This document shows, one piece after another, positions 7,592 to 33,279 of a stretch of DNA of 64,000 nucleotides. The position numbers were made by a program, and so were the translations under genes. Every line of letters begins with the position of its first letter. Position 1 is the first letter of the stretch. The notes beneath the pieces were generated by a model, which made no database searches, was not told the DNA's origin, and was given only the letters and a program-made list of their open reading frames with translations. This DNA is from Nostoc sp. PCC 7107 (lineage in GTDB: Bacteria > Cyanobacteriota > Cyanobacteriia > Cyanobacteriales > Nostocaceae): assembly GCF_000316625.1 (NCBI RefSeq), contig NC_019676.1:4978501-5042500 (forward strand). The letters are read 5' to 3'.

Positions 7592-7684
7592 AGTAGTTAA
7601 GCCTCAAGTAAATCAAGTCAAGTTAACATACTTTACCAATCGATGTCTACTTACTAGGATTCTCACTATTTCTCAATAAATGAA

Positions 7685-7879
7685 TTAGATAGAGTGTGTA
7701 GTCTGGTAATCATTAATTGATTCTATAGCCATTGAATTAGGATTTAATGGAGATAGCCCAGCCGCAATAGCATCTGCATTCACGTACTCAAAGCAGTCTA
7801 AAAAGTTCGGCAATAAACTCATTGCAACAGTTGTTTTTCCTGAACCATTTGCACCACCAATTATGTAAAGATTTGGCAT
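7685..7879 (-). pseudogene. Zeta-toxin/P-loop kinase-like fragment
   Basis: The 64-residue product begins MPNLYIIGGANGSGKTTVAM, a Walker A loop of the kind found in zeta-toxin-like small kinases, then FEYVNADAIAAGLSPLNP, which matches the start of the substrate pocket. Family members are about 190-200 residues; this one stops early after a changed tail (SINDYQTTHSI), so roughly the last two thirds are gone. Its start codon lies one base after the stop of the ABC ATPase gene. It is probably inactive. No epsilon-type antitoxin is adjacent. Confidence 0.65.
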
Positions 7880-7880
7880 T

Positions 7881-9344: not shown

Positions 9345-9363
9345 TTAATTTATGGCTTTTTAA

Positions 9364-9385
9364 ACGCAGAGTTCCGCGGAGTTAT
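9364..9385. repeat. CGCAGAG repeat fragment, copy 3
   Basis: A short partial copy: ACGCAGAG (9364-9371) followed by CCGCGGAG. It lies in the 59-bp gap between the BMP lipoprotein and the ATPase genes and lacks the second half seen in the two longer copies. Confidence 0.5.
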
Positions 9386-9403
9386 TATTGAAGGCTTATC
9401 TAA

Positions 9404-10459
9404 TTATGCTGGTGCTTTCTTGACGCAACGTGTATCTTTACCAGCTTCTTTGCAATTTTCAAACGTCAGTTTTTTATCAATAATTTCTTGTTTTACTTTC
9501 AGGGCGTTATTTTTCACTTGTTCTGGTACGACTGCGGCAAAGTTTCCTAAATTCAAGATATCTGGTCTTTCTAACCCGATGGCATATATTTGCCCTTTTA
9601 ATTGTTTTTGTTTAGCTAATTCTGCTAAGTAAGATATAGCTAAATCTAATCTTTTTACTGCACTAGTTAATACTGCTTTTGGGGCAACATCTAATTGGTC
9701 TTTTGTATTTCCAAAGGCGTAAATGCCTTTATCGCTGGCGGTTTGTAAAACTGCTGGTGAGGCGCTATCTAACCATTGATAAATCACATCTGCTCCAGCA
9801 GAAATTAAGGCGAGTGTTGCTTCTTTAGCTTTAGCGACATCATTCCAATCGCCTGTAAATGTGGAAACAATTTGAATATTTGGGTTAACTGATTTTGCAC
9901 CTAATTCAAAGCCGCGTAATTCTTCTTGGGTGGCTTGAAATTGTTGCCCAGCAATGTAAGCTAATTTATTAGATTTGGTCATATCAGCAGCAATAATCCC
10001 GCACAAATAGCTACCTTGCAAATGATCTATGCGTAAAGAAGCGATATTTTCGCCTTTCACATTCCCATTCACACCGACAAAAAATGTATTGGGAAATTGT
10101 GTTGCAACTTGTTCTACTGCTGCATCAAATTGTCCGCCGTGAGCAAAAACTAAATTGTACCCTTTGCGGGCAAAGTCTGTTAATACTTCTGTTTGGTCGG
10201 CTTGGGCGACTTGTTCTATATATGCGACTTCTGCACCCAGCTTTTGTTTAGCTAGGTTTACGCCTTCGTAACCAGACTGATTCCAGGCTTTATCGCTGAT
10301 GACTCCAGGGAGGGCGATCGCTATTTTAAACCCTTCAGCGCCACTACTGGCTGTGGGTGTCTGGGTTTGGTTACTGCTACAAGCTTTGAGTAATAAGCTG
10401 GTAGCAAAGGTAGCTGAACCATAAAAAACAAATTGACGGCGACTAATATTTAGTCTCAT
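9404..10459 (-). CDS. BMP family nucleoside-binding lipoprotein
   Basis: The 351-residue protein has an RRQFVFYG start, a hydrophobic segment and a lipobox ending LLLKAC at about residue 27, so it is an exported lipoprotein. The mature part follows the BMP/PnrA (Med) fold: FKIAIALPGVISDKAWNQSG with GYEGV, later LVFAHGGQFDAAVEQVA, FPNTFFVGVNGN, CGIIAADMTKSNKLAYIAGQ and GADVIYQWLDSASPAVLQ. Family members bind purine nucleosides and deliver them to NupOPQ-type importers. It is the first gene of the cluster and divergent from 10664, so the operon promoter should lie in 10460-10663. The exact ligand is inferred from the family only. Confidence 0.92.
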   Translation of the reverse strand: MRLNISRRQFVFYGSATFATSLLLKACSSNQTQTPTASSGAEGFKIAIALPGVISDKAWNQSGYEGVNLAKQKLGAEVAYIEQVAQADQTEVLTDFARKGYNLVFAHGGQFDAAVEQVATQFPNTFFVGVNGNVKGENIASLRIDHLQGSYLCGIIAADMTKSNKLAYIAGQQFQATQEELRGFELGAKSVNPNIQIVSTFTGDWNDVAKAKEATLALISAGADVIYQWLDSASPAVLQTASDKGIYAFGNTKDQLDVAPKAVLTSAVKRLDLAISYLAELAKQKQLKGQIYAIGLERPDILNLGNFAAVVPEQVKNNALKVKQEIIDKKLTFENCKEAGKDTRCVKKAPA

Positions 10460-19831: not shown

Positions 19832-21190
19832 TCAATCTTGATGATAAAGCTGAAATTCTTGAGCGACATCAGCCGCAATACTTTGTCTAAGTTCATCAGG
19901 AAAGATAACTTCACATTTCGGTCGCCAAGCACGTAAACGCATCATCACGTTATTATCTCGATTTTTGGCATCTTGATATCTAATAAATACTTGGTAATAA
20001 GCATCTTCTGATGAACGATTAGCAAGAACTTTTAATAAAGCTTGTTGTTGTGTCGATTCTGTTAGTTTTTGTTTGATTAATTTCTGTACTTGCTCATAAG
20101 AAATTTCTTGAAATGTTTCATGACGTTCGGTACCTTTAACATAGCGATCGCCAAAATCTCTATCAAACCGCAGCAACATCAATTGTGCAGGTAAATAAAA
20201 ATCAAACCCCCAAGCTTTCGACATTTCTAAAGCTACATAATCAGGTGTGGGTAAAGTATGTCTTTGATAATCTTGTTGTAAATTTACTGGAATTTTGGCA
20301 TTATCCCAGGTTAAAGGCTGTATTTTTTGAATATGATCAAGGCGAAAGTTATACCATTGATTCTGAATATCAGGACTTTCACCATAAGCACATAAATATA
20401 CTGCTCTTTGAATATAGTAAATACAGACTGGATAAACAATGCAATTAACTTTATTTCCTACTTTGGCACTTTTGTAAGTTAGTTGAATTGGTGCGACTAA
20501 AGTTTTTGTCCATAATTCTCTTAATTGATGTTGCCAATCATCAACAGCATCTAAGTTACTGCGGGGTGTAATATAATCTAACTTGAGAAAAAATCTTTGG
20601 ACTCCGTTAATTTTTTGCGAGTGATTTTCGGCAAATCCTACCAAATCTTCGTGCAGAAAATTCAATTCATAATTATCGTCAGATTTTGCCGCAATTGGAC
20701 GCGCCGGAAATTCAATAACACGATAATATTTATCATTTCGATAAATCAGCCAATGCAAATTAACTAAAACTTGTAAATCACCATGCAAAGAACGACGAGT
20801 TACAGCAAACAATCTTTGTTGCAAGATTTCATCTAATTTAGATTCTGTTATCCCAGTATGAGCAATTAATAATTCTTGCCATTGGTCAGTAAAAATTCCA
20901 GTATTTTCATTAAATAACCATTGGGCTGTTGTTTTTGCACAAGCACAACGAGAGTCATGTAAATGCGGAATTTCTTCGCCTTTAGTATGAGTGGGGCTAA
21001 AAAAAGCATCTCGCCATTCTGTATAAGTAAAGCCATCATCCAACATTAAACATTCTTGATGACCACCGTAAATTGAACGCAACCACACCCACAACCGAAT
21101 TGTCCGCAACAGTTTTTGCTTGAGTGAACCCCGTGCTAACCATTGCAGCAAATCAACTTGTGGTAAATCTTGAAATACAAATTCAGACAC
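19832..21190 (-). CDS. TIGR03985-type CRISPR-associated WYL-domain protein
   Basis: At 452 residues, its length and sequence fit the TIGR03985 family known from cyanobacterial CRISPR loci (recalled, not searched). The N-terminal third (LLQWLARGSLKQKLLRTIRL) is helical and has a Cys pair CACAK near residue 85. The central part reads ITPRSNLDAVDDWQHQLREL. A WYL-like ligand-binding segment follows: YPVCIYYIQRAVYLCAYGES, then QWYNFRLDHIQKIQPLTW. WYL proteins often regulate phage-defence operons in response to nucleic acid or nucleotide ligands. The gene is divergent from the type III operon across a 101-bp gap with a palindrome, so it may be its regulator. Confidence 0.75.
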   Translation of the reverse strand: MSEFVFQDLPQVDLLQWLARGSLKQKLLRTIRLWVWLRSIYGGHQECLMLDDGFTYTEWRDAFFSPTHTKGEEIPHLHDSRCACAKTTAQWLFNENTGIFTDQWQELLIAHTGITESKLDEILQQRLFAVTRRSLHGDLQVLVNLHWLIYRNDKYYRVIEFPARPIAAKSDDNYELNFLHEDLVGFAENHSQKINGVQRFFLKLDYITPRSNLDAVDDWQHQLRELWTKTLVAPIQLTYKSAKVGNKVNCIVYPVCIYYIQRAVYLCAYGESPDIQNQWYNFRLDHIQKIQPLTWDNAKIPVNLQQDYQRHTLPTPDYVALEMSKAWGFDFYLPAQLMLLRFDRDFGDRYVKGTERHETFQEISYEQVQKLIKQKLTESTQQQALLKVLANRSSEDAYYQVFIRYQDAKNRDNNVMMRLRAWRPKCEVIFPDELRQSIAADVAQEFQLYHQD

Positions 21191-21291: not shown

Positions 21292-21597
21292 ATGTCTACC
21301 TATAAAATTGAAATTAAAGAAGATTTATTACGAGTTAGTTTTGGCGAACCCGCCCAAAATGATCAGATTGTACGTGATGCAGCCGCCAGATTAGAAGAGA
21401 TGTCTGCATCAGGAGAATTAGCCGGAGGACAGCTACTCAAAATTAACGGGCCGATTTCTATTCCTGTAGCATTTGTTCTAGCACATAAACTCGCTCATAT
21501 ATATGGTGCTGTTGCTTTTTACGATCCGAAGTTAGGTAAATATGTCATTTGTATCACACACAATCCTTCGTATAAACTAGGAGACTTAATTGATTGA
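21292..21597 (+). CDS. csx3: Csx3 (Crn3) cyclic-oligoadenylate ring nuclease
   Basis: The 101-residue protein matches stand-alone Csx3: LLRVSFGEPAQNDQIVRDAA, GGQLLKINGPISIPVA, then LAHKLAHIYGAVAFYDPKLG and a C-terminal YVICITHNPSYKLGDLI. Csx3 belongs to the CARF-related ring nucleases that cut cyclic tetra-adenylate and so switch off type III CRISPR signalling. The conserved His/Asp pair expected at the active site is present (His65 and Asp78 by my count). It is the first gene of the operon, followed 44 bp later by a larger Csx3 fusion. Together they make the off-switch of the system. Confidence 0.92.
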   Translation: MSTYKIEIKEDLLRVSFGEPAQNDQIVRDAAARLEEMSASGELAGGQLLKINGPISIPVAFVLAHKLAHIYGAVAFYDPKLGKYVICITHNPSYKLGDLID

Positions 21598-21641: not shown

Positions 21642-22571
21642 ATGACAACCTATCACATTAATTTAGAAGGCGACGTTTTAAAAGTCAGATTTGGCAAACC
21701 CGGTAATGGCGATCAAGTAGTGCGGGATGCAGCAGTACGTTTAGATGAGATGGTGGTATCAGGTGAACTTTCTGGAGGCAAACTGCTAAAGATTGATGGA
21801 CCTGCATCTGTAGCCGTGAGTTATTTGATAGCACATAAGATATCTCAACTGTATGGTGCGATCGCAATTTTCGACCCCAAAATTGGCAAACAAGGATATA
21901 AAACTTATATAGTTGCGGCTACCCATACACCTGCTTACAAATTGGGTGAACTTGTTGAAACAGATGAACCACAAAAGATTAAATCTGCTATCAAAGTTGT
22001 ACTTTGTGGCCCTCCACAGTCAGGTAAATCATGTCTGCGTGAAGGTTTAAAGCAAGCAATCAGCAATATTAAAGGCGCACCTTATCCTTATGTAATTACC
22101 GCTTGTCCAGATGGTGAAGGTGCGTGGTTTTCTGATGCGGCGCGGCGCGATTTAGATTTAGCCAAACGATTGAAAGATGAGTATAAAGCCAAATTCACCC
22201 CAGAATTTGCACAAAAAGCGGCTGGGTGGGTAAGGAGTGCCAATACACCACTAAATATTATTGATGTGGGTGGACAAATTACTGAAGAAAATCGGCTGAT
22301 TATGCGTGAAGCGACTCATGCGGTAATTTTAGCAGGCGATCGGGCTAAGGAAGAAGTTCCGCGATGGGAAGAGTTTTGTCGAGATTTGAATATACATATC
22401 ATTGCTAATCTTGATAGTGATTTTTACGGTACAGAAGATCACATTGTTACGCGATCGCCTTTACTAACTGGCAGTGTTCATTCCCTCAAACGGGGAGAGG
22501 ATGTTTCTAGCCGTCCGATGGTGCAGGCTTTGGCGCGGGTTTTGGCGGGGTTGTGTGGTAGTTCGCTTTAA
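21642..22571 (+). CDS. csx3: Csx3-AAA fusion ring nuclease
   Basis: Of 309 residues, the first ~105 are a Csx3 domain (VLKVRFGKPGNGDQVVRDAA, GGKLLKIDGPASVAVS, AHKISQLYGAIAIFDPKIG), clearly related to the neighbour encoded upstream. The rest is a P-loop domain with Walker A LCGPPQSGKSCLREGL (about 122-136) and a Walker B-like LNIIDVGGQITEENRLI. Csx3-AAA fusions are a known variant of Crn3 ring nucleases; the P-loop part's job is unresolved. Compared with the short Csx3, one His of AHKLAH is Gln here while the first His is kept. The Cas10 gene starts 22 bp after this stop. Confidence 0.9.
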   Translation: MTTYHINLEGDVLKVRFGKPGNGDQVVRDAAVRLDEMVVSGELSGGKLLKIDGPASVAVSYLIAHKISQLYGAIAIFDPKIGKQGYKTYIVAATHTPAYKLGELVETDEPQKIKSAIKVVLCGPPQSGKSCLREGLKQAISNIKGAPYPYVITACPDGEGAWFSDAARRDLDLAKRLKDEYKAKFTPEFAQKAAGWVRSANTPLNIIDVGGQITEENRLIMREATHAVILAGDRAKEEVPRWEEFCRDLNIHIIANLDSDFYGTEDHIVTRSPLLTGSVHSLKRGEDVSSRPMVQALARVLAGLCGSSL

Positions 22572-22593: not shown

Positions 22594-24888
22594 ATGGTGA
22601 CAAGTTCTCAAGTTGCATTACAGGTTATTCAACAGGCGATCGCAGCCTTAGCTAAATGGGCAGATTTAGCTCATCCTTCTCTAGATCATGAATATAAAGA
22701 AGTTACTAGAGCTAAGACAATATTAGGTTGGAAAGAAGACACAAAAGTTGAAATATTACGCCTGTTATTTGACAGCATTAAGTTACCTGATGGACAAGGA
22801 CAAGAGCCCGGAAAACAACATTATCATCAATTAGTAGCAATTGAAAAGGGAAATCAAGGATATCCTAAAATTCCTTATCCATTGCCTTATAAACCTAACG
22901 AAGAACAGCAGAAAATTTTCAAACAACAAATCCACAATGAAATATTAAATGCGCTCCCAAATAACTGGGAAAATCTATCCTATTTACTGGCGATTTTAGA
23001 AAGATTTGGCTCATGTCTAAGTTTTAGTGCATTCGATGTTTGTTTAGTAGACATGGCAAGGTCTACAGCAGCAGTGGCAGCCGCTTTAGTTAGTCATGAA
23101 AATGTTGATAATATTAGCTTAATTGCTGGTGATATTTCCGGGATTCAAAAGTTTATTTACACTATTTCTTCTGATGGCGCACTTAAATCATTAAGGGCAA
23201 GAAGTTTTTATTTAGAGTTAGTCATACAAGAAGTAGTACAGCAATTGCTTGAAGACTTAAAACTGCCAAAGACTAACATAATTTACGCTAGCGGTGGTAA
23301 TTTTTACTTAATTGCATCTAGTAATTTACAAGATGTAAAAGAATCTATTAACAAAGTGAGTCAAAAATTTAATAGATGGTTACTAAATACATTTAAAGGC
23401 AAGCTCTTTTTAGCCATTGATTGTATATCGATACCAACTAAAGATTTAGAAGATAACCATTTTGCACATTATTGGACTAAACTCACTAAAGATTTGGCTA
23501 ATCAAAAAGCTCGTAAATTCAATAAAGAAATTAATTTCTTTATTCAAGAAACTAGAAGTCATGAACCTTGCCGAGTTTGTCATCGAGATGATCTACCTAG
23601 TTTACAACCATTAATTCACCTAAATCCAGATTCTTCTCCGGCCTGCTGGGTGTGTCGTACTATGTTTGAGTTAGGTAATAATTTATTTGATGTTAATATT
23701 TTATTACGTTCTAAGAGAGCAAATATTAAAGAACATGTAGGTAGAGTTTATATTCCTGGTTATTACTACTACTTTTTCACAAACTGGGAACAAGCAGTAA
23801 AATTAGCTCGAAATAATGAAACAGTTTTTCTTGTTAACGATTGGGATTTAAATCACTATAAACAAGACAAGACATTACTTTTATCATTAGGAAATTATGC
23901 TAAAGAAAGCGAAGTAGAGGTAGGAAGATTTATTCGTGCTGAAGAAATGGCAAAAGTTGCAGAAAAATCAGGTGCAATTCCTAGAGTTGGCTATCTGCGT
24001 ATGGATGTAGATCGACTAGGAAGACTTTTTGCAGAGGGTTTCGATGAAAAGAATCGGACATTACCAAGAATTGCCGGACTGTCTCGCCAAATGAGCTATT
24101 TCTTTAAAGTTTATCTCAACAGCTTGGCAGACAATCGTGATGATAATTTTATCAAGCATTGCCAAAGTAAAAATACTGAGGTTTTAAATAATGCTAAATA
24201 TCTGACAGATAGGACTCGAAAAAATTTACTATTTATTTATGCCGCAGGTGATGATTTATTTATTAGCGGCGCTTGGAATGAACTTGTAGAATTTACCTTT
24301 GATATTTACCAGTGTTTCCGCGCTTATACAGGTAACAATCCAGATATTACAATATCAGGAGGTATCAGTATTAATGATATAAAATATCCTCTTTATCAAG
24401 CTGCTGCTGATTCAGAAAAATCTGAAAAAGGTGCTAAAGAAAATGGTAAAGATAGTTTTGGATTATTTAATCAAATTTTTAAATGGGATGAATGGCTGGG
24501 AACTGCAAAAATTACCAGTTTTGATCAAGAAAACCAAAAATACATAAATCCAGAAACTAAGCCAGATATGTTGGGTATCTTACCATTTGTAGAGAGATTA
24601 GAACAGCAAAATATTGGTGTTAATCATTCCCGGAATTTTGTACGTAACCTGCTCATAACTGCACAAATACAAGAACGGGCATTGGAGAAATTTCAAGATG
24701 ATCAAAAATCACAGGAGGCTTTAGATACTCGCTATTATTTACATCTCCCAAAAATTGCTTATACTTTAGCAAGATTACCCAAAGAAGTATTAAAAGATGA
24801 TGCGTTTCGGAAGTCACTAAAAAATCCGTATAATGCACCATACTTTCGGGCGATCGCAACTTGGATTGAATTCTTAAATCGCTCATAA
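22594..24888 (+). CDS. cas10: Cas10 (Csm1-like), type III-A large subunit
   Basis: The frame is open from 22474, but the extra 40 codons overlap csx3-AAA; ATG 22594 (MVTSSQVALQ) gives 765 residues. The first palm region has AGDISGIQKFIYTI (179-192) and YASGGNFYLIAS. A Cys4 zinc site is formed by CRVC (326-329) and CWVC (351-354). The second palm has YLRMDVDRLGRLFAEG and the cyclase motif as YAAGDDLF (AGDD at 551-554, usually GGDD). The expected N-terminal HD nuclease is degenerate: LVDMARSTAAVAAAL stands where a YDHxxxTAA motif is usual. Cyclic oligoadenylate synthesis looks possible; DNA cutting by an HD site does not. Confidence 0.93.
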   Translation: MVTSSQVALQVIQQAIAALAKWADLAHPSLDHEYKEVTRAKTILGWKEDTKVEILRLLFDSIKLPDGQGQEPGKQHYHQLVAIEKGNQGYPKIPYPLPYKPNEEQQKIFKQQIHNEILNALPNNWENLSYLLAILERFGSCLSFSAFDVCLVDMARSTAAVAAALVSHENVDNISLIAGDISGIQKFIYTISSDGALKSLRARSFYLELVIQEVVQQLLEDLKLPKTNIIYASGGNFYLIASSNLQDVKESINKVSQKFNRWLLNTFKGKLFLAIDCISIPTKDLEDNHFAHYWTKLTKDLANQKARKFNKEINFFIQETRSHEPCRVCHRDDLPSLQPLIHLNPDSSPACWVCRTMFELGNNLFDVNILLRSKRANIKEHVGRVYIPGYYYYFFTNWEQAVKLARNNETVFLVNDWDLNHYKQDKTLLLSLGNYAKESEVEVGRFIRAEEMAKVAEKSGAIPRVGYLRMDVDRLGRLFAEGFDEKNRTLPRIAGLSRQMSYFFKVYLNSLADNRDDNFIKHCQSKNTEVLNNAKYLTDRTRKNLLFIYAAGDDLFISGAWNELVEFTFDIYQCFRAYTGNNPDITISGGISINDIKYPLYQAAADSEKSEKGAKENGKDSFGLFNQIFKWDEWLGTAKITSFDQENQKYINPETKPDMLGILPFVERLEQQNIGVNHSRNFVRNLLITAQIQERALEKFQDDQKSQEALDTRYYLHLPKIAYTLARLPKEVLKDDAFRKSLKNPYNAPYFRAIATWIEFLNRS

Positions 24889-24892
24889 CTAT

Positions 24893-25369
24893 ATGACAGA
24901 ACCAATTAAACCAAAAATATCTTCTCCAACGGTAAACCCCAGACAATCAACTCCTCAAGGCAATATCAATAAAACACAGAATATTGTCGAAGAAATTGTT
25001 AACACTATCAATGATTTGAAGGGTTTACAAGCATACGAAATCCGAAAATTAGTTAAACACGCTGAGGAGTTTGGGCCTTATCTCAAACAACAACGATTAG
25101 AAACGAACCAAATCCGCAAATTTTTAGATGCTGTAACTCGCCTAAAAGCTGACTTATCTGAAACAGGCGAATTTGCCAAAATTGAAACTGAAATAGTTCT
25201 GCTAAAACCCAAATTGGCATACGCCGCAGCTAGACAAAGAGCAGCAAAACCATTAGGTGAGGTCATGTCAGCCGCTATTGATAAAGTTAATAGCAAGGAA
25301 GATTTTGAACGGTTAGTTCAATTAATTGAATCAATTATCGCTTATCACAAAGCTGAAGGTGGAAAATAA
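24893..25369 (+). CDS. csm2: Csm2 (Cas11), type III-A small subunit
   Basis: The 158-residue helical protein has a disordered, Pro/Ser/Thr-rich first 30 residues and then the Csm2 pattern: LQAYEIRKLVKHAEEFGPYL, TNQIRKFLDAVTRLKADL and IVLLKPKLAYAAARQ. Csm2 lines the minor filament of the Csm complex and stabilises crRNA-target pairing. It starts 4 bp after cas10 and 2 bp before csm3, a tight order typical of a type III-A operon. Confidence 0.9.
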   Translation: MTEPIKPKISSPTVNPRQSTPQGNINKTQNIVEEIVNTINDLKGLQAYEIRKLVKHAEEFGPYLKQQRLETNQIRKFLDAVTRLKADLSETGEFAKIETEIVLLKPKLAYAAARQRAAKPLGEVMSAAIDKVNSKEDFERLVQLIESIIAYHKAEGGK

Positions 25370-25371
25370 TT

Positions 25372-26352
25372 ATGCCCATATCATACGAGCAAAAACCCCT
25401 ACTTGGTAAATTAACCCTCACCAGTCAACTATCTGCTGAAACCGGATTGCATATTGGTGGTGGTGGCGAAAATTTAGATATCGGTGGACTGGATAAACCT
25501 GTAATTCGTGACCCTTTAACAAAGTATCCTTACTTACCTGGTTCATCTATTAAAGGCAAACTACGTTCCACTTTAGAAAGGTTATTAAATAAACCTCTAA
25601 ATCGCACAGGAGGAAGCGGTACTTGGCGCTATGAAAGTGATGATTTAGCGAATGGATTTACTGAAGTTGAAGCAGGAAGATTTATTGCCTATGAAGGCGC
25701 TAATACCTGTCAAATTAGCCGCGTGTTTGGTTCTACTGGCGGATCAAAATTTTGGATGCCAATTGTAACTGCTAGAACAGAAGGATTATATGAAGAAAAT
25801 AAAAATAATCCTACTTCTACAATACAAAATCAACATTGTATTAGAATTAATCGCGGACGTAATGCACCGGCTCGCTTAATTATTCGAGACAGTCATTTAG
25901 TACCAGAATCAGCAGAAAAGCTAAAGCAAGTTGACACTGGTTTATATATGACTGAGTGGAAATTTGAAAACGGTATTGACCGAGTAACAGCAGCAGCAAA
26001 TCCCAGACAGTTAGAACGTGTACCTGCTGGGTCAAAATTCCAGTTTGAATTAGTTTATACAGTAGAAAATGCCGAGCAAGCTATTGAAGACTTACAAAAT
26101 ATAGCGATCGCTCTCGCTATTCTAGAAGATGATGCACTTGGCGGACATGGTTCTAGAGGTTACGGCAAAGTCAGATTTCAGCACTTCAATTTTTCCTATC
26201 GTAGCTTGGCGCAATACCGTCAAATTACCAACACTCCTGGCGGCTCATCAGGTTTACAAACATTAGAAACCATCGCCAACACACAAGCACTTTTAGATAA
26301 CTTCGGAAGGTTACGCGAGTATATCGAACAACGGTTATTGCCAGGAAATTGA
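25372..26352 (+). CDS. csm3: Csm3 (Cas7), target-RNA cleaving backbone subunit
   Basis: At 326 residues, it is longer than compact Csm3 proteins (about 220) but of the same RAMP type. ETGLHIGGGGENLDIGGLDK is followed by PVIRDP; the Asp in GGLDKPVI (D41) aligns with the catalytic Asp that cuts target RNA at 6-nt steps. Then come PYLPGSSIKGKLRSTLERL, the crRNA thumb region, and a C-terminal glycine-rich loop LGGHGSRGYGKVRF. The extra length includes an insertion around residues 75-140. RNA-cleaving capacity therefore looks intact even though the Cas10 HD site is lost. Confidence 0.92.
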   Translation: MPISYEQKPLLGKLTLTSQLSAETGLHIGGGGENLDIGGLDKPVIRDPLTKYPYLPGSSIKGKLRSTLERLLNKPLNRTGGSGTWRYESDDLANGFTEVEAGRFIAYEGANTCQISRVFGSTGGSKFWMPIVTARTEGLYEENKNNPTSTIQNQHCIRINRGRNAPARLIIRDSHLVPESAEKLKQVDTGLYMTEWKFENGIDRVTAAANPRQLERVPAGSKFQFELVYTVENAEQAIEDLQNIAIALAILEDDALGGHGSRGYGKVRFQHFNFSYRSLAQYRQITNTPGGSSGLQTLETIANTQALLDNFGRLREYIEQRLLPGN

Positions 26353-26354
26353 TC

Positions 26355-27371
26355 ATGAGTGTCTGGAAATTAGTTAAACTCAACTTTGGGCGTAGTCCCG
26401 CGCACTTTGGGGAAGTGGGAATTGGCATGGAAGAAACAAGCGATCGCGTCCGTTCCGATGCTTTGTTTAGCGCCTGGGTAAGCGTCTATGCACGACTGTT
26501 TGGTAAAAAAACAATTGAAGAATTATTACGCCAATTTCCTCATAAAGACCAACCCCAACTAATACCTCCTTTCCGCATCAGTTCAACATTTATTTACCGA
26601 GAAATTGGGAAAGATATAATTTATTATCTTCCCCGTCCTTTGAAATTCCCTAACAAATATCCTCAGAATGATCTGGCTTTTTTCAAAGATTACAAAAAAC
26701 TTAACTACTTGCCTTTACAGGTATGGCAAAGATGGTATCAGGGAACAGGATTTAATGAAAATGCTGATGTTGACAAATTAATTACTCATAACAATGAGTA
26801 CAACAAAGCCTTTAAAAAAGATAAAGTTCCAAAAATTGCAGTAGATAGAGTCACTAGAGCCACCAATCTTTACCATACTGGTTTTGTTCAATTTGAGTGG
26901 GAGAAAAATCCAGCAGGTTTATACTTTTTGTTGCACTTATCTCCAGAAGGCGAGAAATTAGCAGATAAGCTACAAGCCGCTTTGCACTTTTTAGGAGAAG
27001 AAGGACTTGGGGGAGAACGTTCTAGTGGTGCGGGAAGATTTCAAGCAGAGTGGTTAGAATTACCAAAAGATTGGCAAGATGTAGTGAATTTCTCAGAGGG
27101 AAACCATCACACCATTATGAGTCTATTTTGGGATTCACCCATAACAACTGACTTTTTAGATAACGCCAGCTATGACATTCAAGAACGAGGTGGTTGGATT
27201 GCCGAAAGTCAACTCCGGCGTAAAATGGTGAGAATGTTTAGCGAAGGTTCTGTATTTTTAGCGCCACCACAAGGAAAGCTGGTAGATGTTACACCCAAAG
27301 GTTTCAATAAACATCGTATTTACCGTAGTGGTATTAGCTTAAGTCTGCCCATCAAAGCACAGGATAAATAA
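26355..27371 (+). CDS. csm4: Csm4 (Cas5), crRNA 5'-end cap subunit
   Basis: ATG 26355 (MSVWKLVKLNFGRSPAHFGE), just after the csm3 stop, gives 338 residues; a TTG two codons upstream overlaps that stop. The N-terminal RAMP strand, ETSDRVRSDALFSAWVSVYA and the C-terminal glycine-rich loop LGGERSSGAGRFQAEW fit Csm4, which binds the 8-nt crRNA handle and docks Cas10. Position between csm3 and csm5 agrees. The C-terminal part (GWIAESQLRRKMVRMFSEGS) resembles the second RAMP-like half seen in long Csm4 proteins. Confidence 0.88.
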   Translation: MSVWKLVKLNFGRSPAHFGEVGIGMEETSDRVRSDALFSAWVSVYARLFGKKTIEELLRQFPHKDQPQLIPPFRISSTFIYREIGKDIIYYLPRPLKFPNKYPQNDLAFFKDYKKLNYLPLQVWQRWYQGTGFNENADVDKLITHNNEYNKAFKKDKVPKIAVDRVTRATNLYHTGFVQFEWEKNPAGLYFLLHLSPEGEKLADKLQAALHFLGEEGLGGERSSGAGRFQAEWLELPKDWQDVVNFSEGNHHTIMSLFWDSPITTDFLDNASYDIQERGGWIAESQLRRKMVRMFSEGSVFLAPPQGKLVDVTPKGFNKHRIYRSGISLSLPIKAQDK

Positions 27372-27375
27372 TATT

Positions 27376-28659
27376 ATGGTGGTTTCTCCCGAATTTGCTC
27401 TCAAGAAACCTGATTTTTATCAATCAAAAAAGATACAGTTGACCAGTCCAATTTTACATATAGGCTCATCGGTATCTAGATTGAATCCATTTGAATATGT
27501 GCAGACAGATAGAAAAGTCTATCTACCCAATCAAGAAGCATTAGCAAAGGGTTTATTAGCGCGAGGTGGACGATTTTTAAATGATTACATTCAAGCAATT
27601 GAAGAACGTCAAGATATCACCCAACTATTAAAACAAGCTTTTGGTTCCGAGTGGTGGAAAGCTACAGACACAAATGAGTGTCCAATTTTTCCTAAAGAAT
27701 CTATCAGTCAAAAGTTGACATCAGAGAAAATTACAGATTTACGTCCCATGATTCGCAATGGTATGGGGCAATTATTTATCCCTGGTTCTTCAATTAAAGG
27801 AGCAATTAGAACTGCGATCGCATATCATTTATTGAAATACTCAGACCGCTATCAAGTACCTTCCGCAAAGCGAGTAAGCGAAATTGAGAAAAACTTGAGA
27901 GAAAAATTAGGGCAACTTAACCAATATCAGCATAAATTTCTTGATGATGACCTATTTATGAATAGTTTATTTTCAGAATTTAGTCTTACATATCAAGAGA
28001 GAAACTTTCCAGGTAAAGGACCAAATACAGATTTTTTAAGAGCGCTCAAAGTGACAGATTCAGAACCATTCTTAGAAGGAAAAATTACAACTAAGAAAGG
28101 TCAAGAAATTCCTGTTAATATACCTGTGGTAGCTGAGGTAATTGTTTCTAGCAGATTTCCCGATTACTTAGCTAAATATAAAGCCTCTATCTATGCTGAA
28201 ATGGTGCGAAATGTTCAGACTGAATTCACCGTGACATTAGATACAGAAATGGTTTCATGGTTTCAACATAAACAAGGAATGAAGTTACCCTTTAGTAACT
28301 TGGATGAACTCTTGCAAATATGCCAGGAATTTACCCAAGAACAATGGGATTATGAACATGATTACTGGCAAGAACTTAAAAACAATCCTAGAGCATCAGG
28401 TAAAAATTTAGATTTCAATTACATCCGTGAATTTTATGAGCCAGAAAAATCTCCCTATAGTTTGAGATTGGGGTGGGGTAGTGGAATGAATGGAACTACT
28501 GTTGGTTTGTGTCTTGATGATGAATTACGAGAAGACATCCGCGATACCTGTGGTTTAAAAGCGCCTGGTTTTGAAGCACCAAAATCTAGGCGAACTGTAA
28601 TGAGTTCTAATGGTGAGATCAAATTTGTACCAGGATGGGTTAAATGCAGAGTACTATAG
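27376..28659 (+). CDS. csm5: Csm5 (Cas7-like), crRNA 3' side subunit
   Basis: The 427-residue RAMP protein starts 4 bp after csm4. Early motif IQLTSPILHIGSSVSRLNPF, then RNGMGQLFIPGSSIKGAIRT, the typical Csm5 RAMP motif, and a C-terminal SLRLGWGSGMNGTTVGL glycine-rich loop. Csm5 caps the 3' side of the Csm filament and is needed for crRNA maturation. It is the last core subunit before an AAA/TOPRIM gene pair that is not a standard part of the operon; 57 bp separate them. Confidence 0.9.
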   Translation: MVVSPEFALKKPDFYQSKKIQLTSPILHIGSSVSRLNPFEYVQTDRKVYLPNQEALAKGLLARGGRFLNDYIQAIEERQDITQLLKQAFGSEWWKATDTNECPIFPKESISQKLTSEKITDLRPMIRNGMGQLFIPGSSIKGAIRTAIAYHLLKYSDRYQVPSAKRVSEIEKNLREKLGQLNQYQHKFLDDDLFMNSLFSEFSLTYQERNFPGKGPNTDFLRALKVTDSEPFLEGKITTKKGQEIPVNIPVVAEVIVSSRFPDYLAKYKASIYAEMVRNVQTEFTVTLDTEMVSWFQHKQGMKLPFSNLDELLQICQEFTQEQWDYEHDYWQELKNNPRASGKNLDFNYIREFYEPEKSPYSLRLGWGSGMNGTTVGLCLDDELREDIRDTCGLKAPGFEAPKSRRTVMSSNGEIKFVPGWVKCRVL

Positions 28660-28716: not shown

Positions 28717-30093
28717 ATGCCAAATTACTTAAAAAGAATCGAAGCTATTGGTATTCACAAGCGTTTTGATATTACTCACGATTTTTCACCAGGAGTGAAT
28801 ATCCTACATGGTGTAAATGGTTCTGGAAAAACCACGTTAATTCACATTATCACCAATATTTTAAATGGAGATTATGAACGTTTCTTATATATCGATTTTT
28901 TTCGTATCAGAATTTGGTACGACGATGATAATTTTATAACTCTTTTAAAAGAGAATAGTAATGATGGAGAAACACAAGCTATCAATGTATTTGTTAATCA
29001 AGATCGACGAGGCATTAAGATTAATAAACAAATTAATGAATTTGTCGAGGAATCAAAACTTGAATTAACAAAAAGGTATGCTCAACAAAAAGTCATATTA
29101 GGAGTTGCTTATTTCCCAGCTTTTAGAATGATGATAGAAGCTTGGCAATCCTCAGAAGAAAATATTAGCATAGATCAAGATAAAACTACTAAGTTTGCTA
29201 GGAAAATATTTGGAGAATTTACACCAAAAATAAATTATCCATCTCCCAAAGATATTGAGCAAAGTTTAATATATGAGATTCAAGAAATTAAAAATAAACT
29301 ATCAGTACTTGATCGACAAGTAATGGCACAAGTATCTATAGAGTTTATTTCTGATTCAATCAAAAATAATTTCCAGCATAACTTAGAAAAACCTGAGATA
29401 ATATTTTCTAAAATTAAATCTTTATTTCAGAAAATTCAAAGCTATCCAATCTCCGAAGAATCTTATATGTCTTCAAATGAAATTTATATAAATATTAGAA
29501 ATCTTTTAGATTTACATAGAGAAAACGAAGATAGACAACTCACATTATTTTTAAGCATTTATTATGATTCTCTTGAGAAAATAGCTACTAAATTAAAAGA
29601 AGAGTATTTTAATATTGACAAGTTTTTATCGGCAGTTAATAGTTTCTTAGAAAGTAAAAAACTAACAATATTTAGAGGCATACAAAAAGAAGATAATACA
29701 TTAATCAAAATCATATTTGATGATGGTTCTATATTGAATGGTCTGGGTCTGGATACTTTATCGTCAGGTGAACGTCAAATAGTGACGATTCTGTATGCAG
29801 CTACATATATGAGTGACGAAAAATTAATCATGATTGATGAGCCAGAAATCTCACTGCATATTGACTGGCAAAGAAATTTACTTAAAAAAATGTCTGAGCA
29901 ATTACATGAAAGACAAGTTATTGCCTGTACTCATTCACCAATGATTCCTACAGACTATGATGATTATTTAAGAGAAATAGGAATAACAACAACTGATCAG
30001 AATTTATGGGGATTAGATGAAGAAGATGATGATAATGATAACAATGACTTTGATGAATATGATTTTATAGTTGATGATCAGGAGATATCATAA
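28717..30093 (+). CDS. AAA (ABC-like) ATPase, AriA/OLD-type, inside the CRISPR operon
   Basis: The 458-residue protein has a single ABC/SMC-like ATPase head split by a long helical insertion: Walker A ILHGVNGSGKTTLIHI (29-44), a coiled middle (about 100-330), signature LSSGERQ (348-354), Walker B KLIMIDEPE with D374/E375, and a His switch in ACTHSPMIPTD. The tail is strikingly acidic (DEEDDDNDNNDFDEYDF). This layout is that of AAA_15/AAA_21 defence ATPases such as AriA of PARIS and OLD. Its stop overlaps the start of a DUF4435/TOPRIM gene (TAATG). The pair is more AT-rich than the csm genes, suggesting separate origin. Confidence 0.85.
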   Translation: MPNYLKRIEAIGIHKRFDITHDFSPGVNILHGVNGSGKTTLIHIITNILNGDYERFLYIDFFRIRIWYDDDNFITLLKENSNDGETQAINVFVNQDRRGIKINKQINEFVEESKLELTKRYAQQKVILGVAYFPAFRMMIEAWQSSEENISIDQDKTTKFARKIFGEFTPKINYPSPKDIEQSLIYEIQEIKNKLSVLDRQVMAQVSIEFISDSIKNNFQHNLEKPEIIFSKIKSLFQKIQSYPISEESYMSSNEIYINIRNLLDLHRENEDRQLTLFLSIYYDSLEKIATKLKEEYFNIDKFLSAVNSFLESKKLTIFRGIQKEDNTLIKIIFDDGSILNGLGLDTLSSGERQIVTILYAATYMSDEKLIMIDEPEISLHIDWQRNLLKKMSEQLHERQVIACTHSPMIPTDYDDYLREIGITTTDQNLWGLDEEDDDNDNNDFDEYDFIVDDQEIS

Positions 30094-31184
30094 TGAATGA
30101 GTGGGGTTTTAAGATTGATGAATATCAACGTGCAATTGGAACATTCAGTAACAGAAAACGTTTAATAGTTGAAGGCAAATCAGATAAATATTTATTTAAA
30201 ATATTGTTGGACGAATTTTCTCTGGCAACACATCAATTCCAGAAAGAAAGAAAAAACAGTATTGACAAAGTTGATATTGATGACGTTGAGACACTGATTA
30301 AAAGTGATGATTCACTCAAATTATTTATTGTTGATGCTGCTGGTAATCGTCAAAAAATTGAACGCATTCATAAAAATGTTAAAAATCTACCGAAATACAC
30401 TAATTTAGTATTTTTCGTTGATCGGGAGTTTGACAATTTTACTATTTCTTTTGAAGAAGAGATTAAAGATGAAATGAGTAGTCATAAAGTTGATGGCGCA
30501 CTTATTTGGTCTAGAGGTCATTCAATTGAAAACTATTTATTTGACTCCACTATTCTTCATCAGCCTTTAAGAATATTATCTGATGGAAAGTTATTCGATG
30601 ATGCTATTAAAATATTTGAAGATAATTTTTATTTAACGATTCGTCTCGCTAGTGCCGTTAGTATAGCATTTAAAGAATGTGAAAAAATACAAGCTTTGGA
30701 AAAAATAATTGACTGGGAATTAATTGATATTGACACTTCAAATGTTAATTTACGAATTGTTGATTGGAGAGAAAAAATGTATAAAAGAGGTGAGCAAGAT
30801 CAGAGAGGAAGAACAATTAGAAAATTCTCTAATGAAGAAATTGAACAAATAATAAATAGTTACCAAATGTGGTATCAAAAAATTGAAAATGATAATGTAG
30901 ATGAAAGTATCCTTCGATGGATATGTCACGGTCATATTGGATTTCAAGTAATTTTGGAAGTATATTGTAGCTGCGTTCACTATTGCGTTCTAAATAGAGA
31001 AATAAACAACGAATTAAATAAAACAAAAGATATAAATAAAGTTTATAGAGAAGCAAATCACAAAATTCACAAAAGTGGAAAAGATGATATATGGGAGCAA
31101 TTTGCTAATTGGTGGGCGCATAAAGCCGTGAGAAATGAGTGTCTTTATCCATTAGAAGTTTTAGAAAAGTTAGGGATAATCTAA
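30093..31184 (+). CDS. DUF4435/TOPRIM protein, AriB-like
   Basis: The 363-residue protein follows the DUF4435 pattern: RLIVEGKSDKYLFKILL with Glu27, then TNLVFFVDREFDNF with Asp110 and Asp114, then the family hallmark LIWSRGHSIENYLFD (138-152). Glu plus DxxxD is the TOPRIM metal site, implying a nuclease. In PARIS (AriA ATPase plus AriB DUF4435) the nuclease is held by the ATPase and released by an anti-restriction protein, then attacks host tRNA. Here the start codon overlaps the ATPase stop, so the two are translated together. Whether this is PARIS-like or a CRISPR effector cannot be decided from sequence. Confidence 0.82.
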   Translation: MNEWGFKIDEYQRAIGTFSNRKRLIVEGKSDKYLFKILLDEFSLATHQFQKERKNSIDKVDIDDVETLIKSDDSLKLFIVDAAGNRQKIERIHKNVKNLPKYTNLVFFVDREFDNFTISFEEEIKDEMSSHKVDGALIWSRGHSIENYLFDSTILHQPLRILSDGKLFDDAIKIFEDNFYLTIRLASAVSIAFKECEKIQALEKIIDWELIDIDTSNVNLRIVDWREKMYKRGEQDQRGRTIRKFSNEEIEQIINSYQMWYQKIENDNVDESILRWICHGHIGFQVILEVYCSCVHYCVLNREINNELNKTKDINKVYREANHKIHKSGKDDIWEQFANWWAHKAVRNECLYPLEVLEKLGII

Positions 31185-31228: not shown

Positions 31229-31990
31229 ATGCTAATTCATTCAACTTGGACATTAAGCGTATCCGATCTGACAGTTTTACCTCGTTCCTATAGCTTAGAA
31301 CTGGTTAAACAACTACATAAACAACTAGGTTTAGAAATAGGAGTTGAGACAATTGCCTCTACTTCTTACTCAGGAATAATCGGTTTTTATTCCACATCCA
31401 AAGATTTTTTGACGTTCCATCCAGAGGAATTTTATAAGTTATCACTGTCTGGACTACAGGAAGTTACAGCCAAAGCAATTTCTCATCTCAATCTCTCAGA
31501 ATATTTAGAATTTCTCGGAGCAAAATTTAAGATCATCAACCGTGAAGATGAAATCACCAGTTATGAAGAACTGTACACAAATTTAGTAGCAAATGAACCA
31601 GAACACATTAGACGGTTTGACTTGCAGTTTATCACTCCTACTGCTTTTGCTCAAGGTGGAGCAAACCTACCTTTACCTTTACCTACACTCATGTTTCGCA
31701 GTTGGTTAGAACGCTGGAATAATTTTGCACCTGTATATTTAGGAGGTGATGAATTAATTGCTTATCTTAATAACGCTGTTGTACTTAAAAGTCACAAGAT
31801 TCACACTCGAACGTACCAATTACATAAAGGGTTTGTGAATGGATTTGTTGGTGATGTAACTTTACAAATTTTTAACCGTGCTGATCCATTACTGGCGAAT
31901 GTGGCTAACTTATTAGTGCAATATTCGCGTTTTGCAGGTACGGGTATGAAGACACGCTTGGGTATGGGACAGACAATTCTAAATGACTAA
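31229..31990 (+). CDS. cas6: Cas6 pre-crRNA processing endoribonuclease
   Basis: This 253-residue double-RAMP protein ends in the Cas6 glycine-rich motif FAGTGMKTRLGMGQT. A central LQFITPTAFAQGGANLPLPL and LMFRSWLERWNNFAP are typical of the Cas6 form found with cyanobacterial type III systems. Cas6 cuts the CRISPR transcript inside each repeat to make crRNAs with an 8-nt 5' handle. It lies after the AAA/TOPRIM pair, 44 bp downstream, so the pair is embedded in the operon rather than attached at its end. A catalytic His is likely among several in the sequence; I could not place it. Confidence 0.9.
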   Translation: MLIHSTWTLSVSDLTVLPRSYSLELVKQLHKQLGLEIGVETIASTSYSGIIGFYSTSKDFLTFHPEEFYKLSLSGLQEVTAKAISHLNLSEYLEFLGAKFKIINREDEITSYEELYTNLVANEPEHIRRFDLQFITPTAFAQGGANLPLPLPTLMFRSWLERWNNFAPVYLGGDELIAYLNNAVVLKSHKIHTRTYQLHKGFVNGFVGDVTLQIFNRADPLLANVANLLVQYSRFAGTGMKTRLGMGQTILND

Positions 31991-32012: not shown

Positions 32013-32924
32013 ATGGAAACAATGATAATGACTGTAGGGACTTCACTTCTTACTAATCGTGATGAAAATTTAGATAATAAACGTCCTTGGGTTGGACATC
32101 AAATAATAGGTGATCGTCAAATAGCTCTTCAGTGGATGACTGAAATAGAACCAGAATTTATTAGTGCTGAAACTAATACAATATGGCGACTTAATCCTGG
32201 CTTTAATGATGAAATTTTATTGTTGCATTCAGATACTCCATCTGGCTTAGAATGTGCTGAAGTTGTTCAGGAATATCTACAAACTGTTTTGGGTCAAAAA
32301 AATGTATGTCTATATTCAATTCCAGGAATTAATTATGATTTAGATGAATCAGGATCAGCATTAGAACAGATGGCGATATTTCTCAGAAAATTGATTTCAG
32401 AAGCAAAGGGAAATGTCACTTTAGCAGCAACCGGTGGTTTTAAAGCCCAAACAATGATTATGGCACTGGTAGGTAATGCTTTTAAAGTTCCTGTATGCTA
32501 TGTTCATGAACAGTATAAAGCACTTATTTACTTACCGTATTTATCTGATACTGCCGAACCTCAAGTATTAGTAAAACGTGCCAACCTACCTGAATCTGGC
32601 CTAGATAGATCAAAAATTATCAAAGTTCAAGACGAATCATACGGGCATCATAGACCAAAGGTATGGAAAAAAGTAGAAAAAATGCTGCAAAATATTATTT
32701 GGGTTGAGTATGTAAGATTTGACCAGAATGCTTTTTCTGCTCCTAAAAATGGAGTAAAAGCAGCTACACGAAAAACCCCTGATGGTCGTCATATATTTTG
32801 GATTCACTTACATGAAAGTGAACAAAAACATATTGCTGTTTCTGTGGAGACTACAGGTTATACGCCAGAACACTTGGAGCAAGCAACAAAGGAACTACGC
32901 GAACGCTTAGGTAGTTTAGTTTAA
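32013..32924 (+). CDS. CARF-domain CRISPR-associated protein (Cas_APE2256/TIGR02619-like)
   Basis: The 303-residue protein has an N-terminal CARF fold: the first strand-loop is METMIMTVGTSLLTN and the ligand-binding motif AATGGFKAQTMIMALVGNAF (138-157) is followed by PVCYVHEQYKALIYLPYL. The C-terminal ~110 residues (from about 200, HHRPKVWKKVEKML) form a small mixed domain I do not recognise. No helical HEPN Rx4-6H motif or clear PD-(D/E)XK site stands out; RKTPDGRH at about 253-260 fits the spacing but sits in a Pro/Gly turn. CARF proteins bind cyclic oligoadenylate. It ends the operon. Confidence 0.8.
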   Translation: METMIMTVGTSLLTNRDENLDNKRPWVGHQIIGDRQIALQWMTEIEPEFISAETNTIWRLNPGFNDEILLLHSDTPSGLECAEVVQEYLQTVLGQKNVCLYSIPGINYDLDESGSALEQMAIFLRKLISEAKGNVTLAATGGFKAQTMIMALVGNAFKVPVCYVHEQYKALIYLPYLSDTAEPQVLVKRANLPESGLDRSKIIKVQDESYGHHRPKVWKKVEKMLQNIIWVEYVRFDQNAFSAPKNGVKAATRKTPDGRHIFWIHLHESEQKHIAVSVETTGYTPEHLEQATKELRERLGSLV

Positions 32925-33279
32925 CAACTACATTTCGATCGCACTTCTAATTCCCATCAAAACCCAACAGCGATCGCACCTCTCAATTTCCCCTCAAACC
33001 CAAACAATGAGTATCTTACAGCGATGCCACGAGCAGCTACAACTACGAAGCGTCAGCCGAAAGCCAAGTCTGCGTCTACTTCTTCAGTTCCTACGTTGTT
33101 CATGTGTCGCCACACATTGTGAATGTGTGGCCTTGCATTGTGAATGTATTAAGTCACATTGTTAATGCGTGGCCTTGCATTGTAAATGTATTAAGTTAAA
33201 TTTTTGATGTGTTGTCTTACATTAGTTTTGTTTGTTGGGTTTCGCTATTGCTCCACCCAACTTACTTGACTTTAACCTA
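32925..33279. other. Intergenic region after the CRISPR operon
   Basis: No standard gene and no CRISPR array. It starts with two HIP1-containing stretches, then a 32-codon open frame from ATG 33024 (MPRAATTTKRQPKAKSASTS), which looks like the basic start of a protein cut short, and then the 42-bp tandem repeat at 33113-33196. The converging phosphodiesterase gene ends at 33280. Confidence 0.5.
33113..33196. repeat. Two 42-bp tandem repeats with CATT/AATG symmetry
   Basis: The units 33113-33154 and 33155-33196 are nearly identical. Both read CACATTGT, AATG, GTGGCCTTGCATTGT and AATGTATTAAGT in order. Each unit holds two CATTGT-x-AATG half-repeats, so the array is four imperfect palindromic modules. 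There are no spacers, so it is not a CRISPR array. Confidence 0.85.

What the first reader, a model, noticed from the sequence alone, without database searches (positions are those of the whole stretch)
28717..31184. AriA/AriB-like ATPase-TOPRIM pair embedded inside a type III-A CRISPR operon
Seen: between csm5 and cas6, on the same strand and with no promoter-sized gap, lie an AAA ATPase (Walker A, LSSGERQ, Walker B) and a DUF4435/TOPRIM protein (Glu27, DxxxD, SRGHSIENYLF), coupled by a TAATG overlap. Known: the same gene order and families make the PARIS abortive-infection system, whose TOPRIM nuclease attacks host tRNA after release from the ATPase. The operon has no Csm6/Can-type effector that I can identify, so this pair may be the effector arm, a backup triggered when CRISPR is inhibited, or a passenger. 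A merged CRISPR-PARIS unit would be a new type of layered defence.
Basis: partly seen in the sequence, partly recalled or inferred. Interest (0 to 1): 0.82.

Follow-up and report, generated by a model that had tools for sequence, protein, structure and literature searches.

The report
PARIS suicide module inside CRISPR operon
A two-gene self-sacrifice system against viruses (PARIS) sits inside a cyanobacterial CRISPR operon, and related cyanobacteria carry the same pair in exactly the same slot, which suggests a built-in second layer of defence.

Summary
Between csm5 and cas6 lie a true AriA (PDB AriA, E=8e-68) and a true AriB (profile to PDB AriB, E=3e-54), coupled by TAATG, catalytic motifs intact. 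It is not a one-off: ten loci, in the window's order and in Pseudanabaena-like cyanobacteria, carry an intact pair in this exact slot; Calothrix keeps a deletion scar and one AriA is cut by a contig end. Of 80 csm5 loci examined, 63 have 70 nt or less there. Slot-borne AriABs form their own clade (98/99) apart from free-standing cyanobacterial PARIS, unless a long-branch Herpetosiphon copy is included. Their tree shares 5 of 7 splits with the Csm tree, so they mostly travel with the operon, with frequent loss or gain and at least one slot exchange. AriAB adds a layer and does not replace the effector arm. Best reading: a CRISPR-resident PARIS lineage acting as an autonomous abortive tRNase backup. 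Trigger, transcript and guarding are untested.

The parts
28717..30093 (+). ariA: ABC/AAA_15 ATPase sensor of PARIS, 458 aa; Walker A GVNGSGKTT, signature LSSGERQ, Walker B IDEPEISLH, switch His CTHSP, acidic C-terminal tail
   Evidence: phmmer to PDB AriA 8v45 E=8e-68; PADLOC AriA 5.4e-29; motifs intact
30093..31184 (+). ariB: TOPRIM tRNase-type effector of PARIS, 363 aa; E27, D110/E112, RGHSIENY
   Evidence: phmmer to PDB AriB 8ux9 E=2e-22; profile of 18 sequences to AriB residues 2-304 of 316, E=3e-54; PADLOC AriB 1e-14
27376..28659 (+). csm5, left edge of the slot
   Evidence: TIGR01899 1.6e-23
31229..31990 (+). cas6, right edge of the slot
   Evidence: Pfam CRISPR_Cas6 1.7e-18; PADLOC Cas6_IIIa 2.9e-24
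32013..32924 (+). CARF protein (CARF7 group, CARF-RelE-like, 303 aa): the operon's own putative cOA-responsive protein
   Evidence: PADLOC CARF7 1.4e-163, CARF_RelE 3.7e-62; CARF part (residues 50-177) matches PDB 8phb E=7e-8
22594..24888 (+). cas10/csm1 (764 aa if read from ATG 22594), cyclase palm motif AGDD, no HD domain detected
   Evidence: TIGR02578 1.6e-163; Palm2 and Csm1_B but no HD hit; motif
24893..25369 (+). csm2
   Evidence: Pfam Csm2_III-A 1.5e-35
25372..26352 (+). csm3
   Evidence: TIGR02582 1.2e-64
26349..27371 (+). csm4
   Evidence: TIGR01903 5.1e-102
21292..21597 (+). csx3 (Crn3-type ring nuclease family)
   Evidence: PADLOC Csx3 1e-25; Pfam Cas_csx3 5.6e-6; TIGR02579 1.3e-5, below its cut-off
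21642..22571 (+). csx3-AAA fusion
   Evidence: PADLOC Csx3-AAA 3.3e-124; no Pfam or NCBIfam hit
19832..21190 (-). WYL-domain regulator, TIGR03985 CRISPR-associated, divergent
   Evidence: TIGR03985 4.4e-94

Best explanation
The pair is a bona fide PARIS system of a cyanobacterial lineage that resides in the csm5-cas6 slot of type III-A operons. Shown by sequence: AriA and AriB homology along most of each protein, intact catalytic motifs, same-strand embedding without an evident terminator, recurrence at one slot, purifying selection. Inferred: it is transcribed with the csm genes, so that AriA-AriB complexes are present whenever the Csm complex is. Inferred from E. coli PARIS: AriA holds AriB inactive, AriA binds a phage protein (in E. 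coli an anti-restriction DNA mimic), AriB is freed as a dimer and cleaves host tRNAs, stopping translation and phage growth. The Csm complex with its CARF protein would be the first, sequence-specific layer and PARIS the sequence-independent second layer, of most use when a phage blocks or outruns the first. That the trigger is an anti-CRISPR is a guess.
For: AriA and AriB homology; catalytic residues intact in 10 of 10 slot copies. Same slot and orientation in 8 of 80 csm5 loci intact, plus a scar in G030 and an AriA start cut by the contig end in G139, plus two Pseudanabaena-like loci. All 7 of 7 AriB hits among 217 genomes of the window's family lie in this slot, one being the scar. The 10 slot copies form one clade, 98/99, without the Herpetosiphon row. 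AriAB and Csm trees share 5 of 7 splits, reached by 1 of 20000 relabelings, and AriAB data do not reject the Csm topology, p-AU 0.084. dN/dS 0.28 (ariA) and 0.18 (ariB) beside 0.18 (csm5) and 0.20 (cas6) in the pair G020/G142. CARF proteins present in 9 of 10 carriers. PARIS mechanism: passages of PMC9122126 and PMC12409363.
Against: Carriers are scattered over the 82-locus Csm tree (10 changes; 55-62 of 500 shuffles as low), and the loci whose Csm proteins are nearest to the window's have an empty slot, so the csm operon clearly works without the pair. G163 and G166 have 94% identical Csm/Cas6 proteins but 43-47% identical AriA/AriB, so slot content can be swapped; the Csm data reject the AriAB topology. 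With Herpetosiphon included the slot copies are not one clade (AU p 0.039). In the pair L185/L187 ariA and ariB (0.22) are held four times more loosely than csm5 (0.06). No transcript, trigger or tRNA-cleavage data. No structure model was obtained.
Confidence: 0.62

Rival explanations
1. Passenger: a defence cassette that uses a permissive intergenic slot for shared transcription and moves between csm loci through the conserved csm5 and cas6 flanks, without any functional link to CRISPR.
For: 70 of 80 csm5 loci show no AriAB sequence in the slot. The slot also holds Ser/Thr kinase-TPR genes (G086, G239) and a GIY-YIG gene (G293). Sharp identity drop over the slot in G163 vs G166. Slot G+C about 8-13 points below csm3-5 in 8 of 8 loci. 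A deletion scar in Calothrix.
Against: 10 of the 13 gene-bearing slots among the 80 hold AriAB sequence, and the 10 intact copies (8 of these and two Pseudanabaena-like) fall in one clade. In the window's family this AriB was found nowhere else. AriAB topology largely follows Csm. Low G+C is also seen in free-standing copies, 12 of 13 by 6 points or more, so it does not show recent arrival.
Confidence: 0.28
2. Effector arm: AriAB is switched on by cyclic oligoadenylate made by Cas10.
For: Position inside the operon; cyclase motif present in all 10 carriers (GGDD in 9, AGDD in the window), and PMC11229360 (passages) reports AGDD in loci with known effectors; no HD domain detected in the window Cas10.
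Against: No CARF or SAVED domain hit in AriA or AriB in Pfam or among the PADLOC rows shown (for AriA the best 25 of 81 PADLOC rows were shown). CARF proteins are already present in 9 of 10 carriers. Free-standing relatives with the same motifs occur outside csm loci.
Confidence: 0.06
3. Addiction or toxin-antitoxin module that stabilises the CRISPR locus.
For: Two-gene order with a nuclease and its holder; repeated gain and loss of the slot content.
Against: In E. coli PARIS deletion of either gene was non-toxic (PMC9122126, passages). Clean empty slots are common and a deletion scar exists.
Confidence: 0.04

Closest known systems
PARIS (AriA-AriB) of E. coli P4-like satellites
   Same: Gene order, AriA ABC ATPase and AriB TOPRIM homologous along nearly their full length, catalytic residues, two separate genes
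   Different: Sits inside a type III-A CRISPR operon and not in a mobile-element hotspot; window AriB not recognised by Pfam DUF4435; trigger unknown
Type III-A CRISPR (Csm) operon of cyanobacteria with Csx3, WYL and CARF accessory genes
   Same: cas10-csm2-3-4-5-cas6 order, Csx3/Csx3-AAA, WYL regulator, CARF gene
   Different: Carries a two-gene abortive-type system without a cOA-sensing domain between csm5 and cas6
Free-standing cyanobacterial PARIS (Okeania, Microcystis, Microcoleaceae)
   Same: Same AriA and AriB families; against the window pair 25-31% (AriB) and 35-39% (AriA) identity in the main tblastn pieces
   Different: Separate clades, no csm genes beside them in the stretches fetched, shorter and less acidic AriA tails
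CARF-RelE effectors (Cami1, whose PDB entries I take by recall to be 8phb/8phj; SyCsm6 of Synechocystis, PMC9676260 passages)
   Same: The window's own CARF gene belongs to this neighbourhood
   Different: It is the gene after cas6, not the AriAB pair

Membership tests
PARIS (AriA-AriB) | AriA: ABC-type ATPase homologous to solved AriA with Walker A, signature and Walker B | tested here: met
   E=8e-68 over residues 5-422; motifs
PARIS (AriA-AriB) | AriB: TOPRIM protein homologous to solved AriB with catalytic Glu and DxE | tested here: met
   E=2e-22 alone, E=3e-54 as profile over residues 2-304 of 316; E27, D110, E112; the E26A mutant of E. coli AriB is inactive (PMC12409363, passages)
PARIS (AriA-AriB) | Adjacent ariA-ariB, same strand | tested here: met
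   TAATG overlap
PARIS (AriA-AriB) | AriA sequesters AriB; a phage trigger frees it; tRNA is cleaved | not testable with these tools
   Needs experiment
Detection rule of Rousset 2022 (AAA_15 or AAA_21 plus Pfam DUF4435); a search threshold, not a biological definition | DUF4435 score of at least 27 | tested here: not met
   No DUF4435 hit for the window AriB; 1 of 16 members of alignment A1 matches. This may be why such loci were overlooked.
Type III-A CRISPR operon | Cas10/Csm1 and Csm2-Csm5 | tested here: met
Autonomous CRISPR locus (operon with its own array; common, not a defining feature of III-A) | CRISPR array beside the operon | tested here: not met
   No array among the direct repeats of the window; arrays lie by a distant cas1 locus of the same genome, so guides would act in trans
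cOA-activated type III effector | CARF or SAVED sensor domain in the pair | tested here: not met
   none among the hits shown for AriA or AriB

The most novel reading that the evidence does not exclude
A fused two-layer immune unit: a PARIS lineage specialised to guard the type III-A Csm complex. AriA, co-expressed with Csm, would sense phage proteins that disable the Csm complex or its cyclic-nucleotide signal and then free AriB to stop translation, turning a CRISPR-blocking phage into its own alarm.
Probability: 0.27. Interest if true: 0.86.

Novelty: new variant of a known kind. Interest (0 to 1): 0.62.

Why it matters
PARIS is known as a second line behind restriction and BREX. A PARIS lineage that lives in a CRISPR operon, keeps one slot across distant cyanobacteria and shares most of its tree with Csm would extend guard-type immunity to CRISPR and gives a direct test: do type III anti-CRISPRs trigger it? 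It also marks the csm5-cas6 gap as an accessory slot where further effectors (kinase-TPR, GIY-YIG) can be sought. The window AriB escapes the Pfam DUF4435 rule, so similar cases may be missed elsewhere.

Tried and rejected
Chance single insertion: rejected by recurrence at the slot. Missing effector filled by AriAB: rejected, a CARF gene is present. Pseudogene in G020 (search output counted one TAG): rejected, the TAG is the normal end of ariA. Recent transfer argued from low G+C: not used, since free-standing copies are also low, 12 of 13. Viral source: the viral-contig scan gave one distant relative, 25%. A scan of viral contigs for the CARF gene found no relative. PADLOC 'ATPase-Toprim_I-B' is, by recall, a retron subtype name, so it was not taken as a CRISPR link. 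Paper searches for the combination listed no paper that by its title or abstract start reports PARIS in a type III locus; some lists were capped (25 of 29, 20 of 29, 10 of 549), and only that open library is covered. Passages of the type III survey show no PARIS or Toprim in its text, and of the 2025 classification no PARIS, Toprim or DUF4435; neither was read whole. Strict claim of one origin for the slot copies: weakened by Herpetosiphon. Strict claim of pure horizontal exchange: weakened by congruence with Csm.

Full report
Observation. They lie 57 nt after csm5 and 44 nt before cas6, on the csm strand. The promoter and terminator scan lists no terminator in either gap and no excess of either signal over the region. 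The operon reads csx3, csx3-AAA, cas10, csm2, csm3, csm4, csm5, ariA, ariB, cas6, CARF, with a divergent WYL regulator. I read the window's Cas10 from the ATG at 22594 and not from the longer GTG start; it has Palm2 and Csm1_B but no detected HD domain, and carries AGDD where 9 of the other 9 carriers have GGDD. A survey of type III systems reports AGDD among variants in loci with known effectors (PMC11229360, passages).

Identity. AriA matches the solved E. coli AriA at 8e-68. AriB matches solved AriB at 2e-22, and a profile of 18 sequences covers AriB residues 2-304 of 316 at 3e-54. Walker A, signature, Walker B, switch His, the TOPRIM Glu and the DRE motif are intact in 10 of 10 slot copies. 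The window AriB has no Pfam DUF4435 hit; 1 of 16 members of alignment A1 has. The original PARIS detection rule (PMC9122126, passages) would therefore miss it, but DUF4435 is a threshold and not a biological definition. One slot AriB (G282) has no PADLOC hit at 1e-5 either, though its AriA does.

The operon is not without a putative effector. The gene after cas6 (32013-32924) is a CARF7 protein, CARF-RelE-like by PADLOC; its CARF part matches an APE2256-family CARF structure, 8phb, at 7e-8. Its C-terminal domain was not confirmed by structure. Two Csx3-type genes lie upstream. Among the 10 carriers, 9 encode CARF proteins in or next to the operon (window and G142 CARF7; G020, G163, G166, G115 CARF-HEPN, G115 also CARF7; G378 CARF-RelE; L185 CARF-HEPN and CARF-PDDEXK; L187 CARF-HEPN and a partial CARF-RelE); none was found for G282 in the stretch fetched. 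AriAB is thus an addition.

Recurrence. AriB was sought in 60 relatives (4 hits), 217 genomes of the family (7), 388 of the order (19) and 386 of the phylum (6); the sets overlap and give 22 distinct genomes. Of these, 10 have it between csm5 and cas6 (one is the scar) and 12 show no csm5 or cas6 match beside it in the stretches fetched (6.9-19.9 kb). G734's contig has the same length and gene layout as L185, so the two are taken as one. Within the family 7 of 7 are in the slot.

Slot census. Csm5 was found in 57 of 217 and 57 of 388 genomes, 91 distinct. I examined 80 loci; 11 genomes with only weak or fragmentary matches were left out (G024, G066, G137, G194, G197, G264, G268, G370, G421, G454, G513). 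Of 80: 8 have intact AriAB, 1 a scar (Calothrix, G030: AriA 1-43 fused to AriB 239-362), 1 an AriA start cut by the contig end (G139), 2 a kinase-TPR gene, 1 a GIY-YIG gene, 4 a gap of 105-466 nt without a recognised gene, and 63 a gap of 70 nt or less. In all 10 intact carriers the pair has the operon's orientation.

Evolution. A tree of 27 AriA+AriB pairs places the 10 slot copies in one group of 11 with a Herpetosiphon copy on a long branch (98/98); holding the ten together then costs 7.4 log units (p-AU 0.039). Without that row the ten are one clade (98/99). The Herpetosiphon pair follows a phage integrase gene (Pfam) and precedes genes that read as phage-like. On the Csm3-4-5+Cas6 tree of 82 loci, carriers (12 with G030 and G139) need 10 changes, no better than many shuffles (55-62 of 500), so presence is lost or gained often. 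The loci nearest to the window in Csm sequence (up to 86%) have an empty slot. Among the 10 carriers the AriAB data do not reject the Csm topology (p-AU 0.084) while Csm data strongly reject the AriAB topology; 5 of 7 splits are shared, reached by 1 of 20000 relabelings. The clear exception is G163 against G166: csm5 91-98% identical in DNA, cas6 and beyond 96-100% after its first block, a dip to 79-86% in the csm4 region, and the slot at about 50-70%; AriA 43% and AriB 47% in protein. This points to an exchange at the slot. Residence with frequent loss and occasional replacement explains this best.

Selection and composition. For G020 against G142, dN/dS is 0.28 (ariA), 0.18 (ariB), 0.18 (csm5), 0.20 (cas6); for L185 against L187, 0.22, 0.22 and 0.06 for csm5. 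The genes are kept by selection, in the second pair more loosely than csm5. Slot G+C is about 8-13 points below csm3-5 in 8 of 8 loci, but free-standing AriAB is also low in 12 of 13. Slot AriAs have tails of 42-57 residues with 11-28 acidic ones, against 17-48 with 4-12 in 17 others; rows are related, so this is a lead only.

Mechanism. From E. coli: AriA hexamers hold three AriB; phage proteins such as Ocr free AriB, which dimerises and cuts tRNAs (PMC12409363, passages; PMC9122126, passages). I infer the same chemistry here. Guarding of Csm is the boldest reading and is untested. A plain passenger in a permissive slot is the main rival, and the two predict different triggers.

Noticed in passing
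L137 (G086) 6797-7996 and L150 (G239) 6712-7995, minus strand: The csm5-cas6 slot of two genomes holds a Ser/Thr kinase-TPR gene in place of AriAB; such kinases may be another accessory of type III-A operons.
   Followed up: partly
L163 (G293) 7500-7877, minus strand: A GIY-YIG nuclease gene with a small downstream ORF occupies the same slot; its sister locus G378 has AriAB there.
   Followed up: partly
L034 (Calothrix sp. NIES-3974) 9174-9596: Deletion scar: the first 43 codons of ariA are fused in frame to the last third of ariB, leaving a 151-codon open frame between csm5 and cas6.
   Followed up: yes
L201 7597-10945 (Herpetosiphon geysericola): AriAB directly after a tyrosine integrase (Pfam) and before genes that read as phage-like: PARIS in a probable Chloroflexota prophage, G+C 24% in a 53% region.
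   Followed up: partly
window 33096-33221: A 21-nt tandem repeat (five overlapping 42-nt copies at 21-nt spacing) just past the end of the CRISPR operon; it does not look like a CRISPR array.
   Followed up: no
window 55795-58149: Long array of 27-nt-spaced repeats and 561-nt larger repeats, perhaps a repeat-rich calcium-binding (RTX-type) protein gene; not tested.
   Followed up: no
G000 contig 1 3296000-3315900 (L213): Two cas1 matches, one in a 683-aa frame, with CRISPR repeat families of about 32 copies (in two blocks) and 27 copies and a second cas6-like match; these arrays would have to guide the array-less III-A operon in trans.
   Followed up: partly
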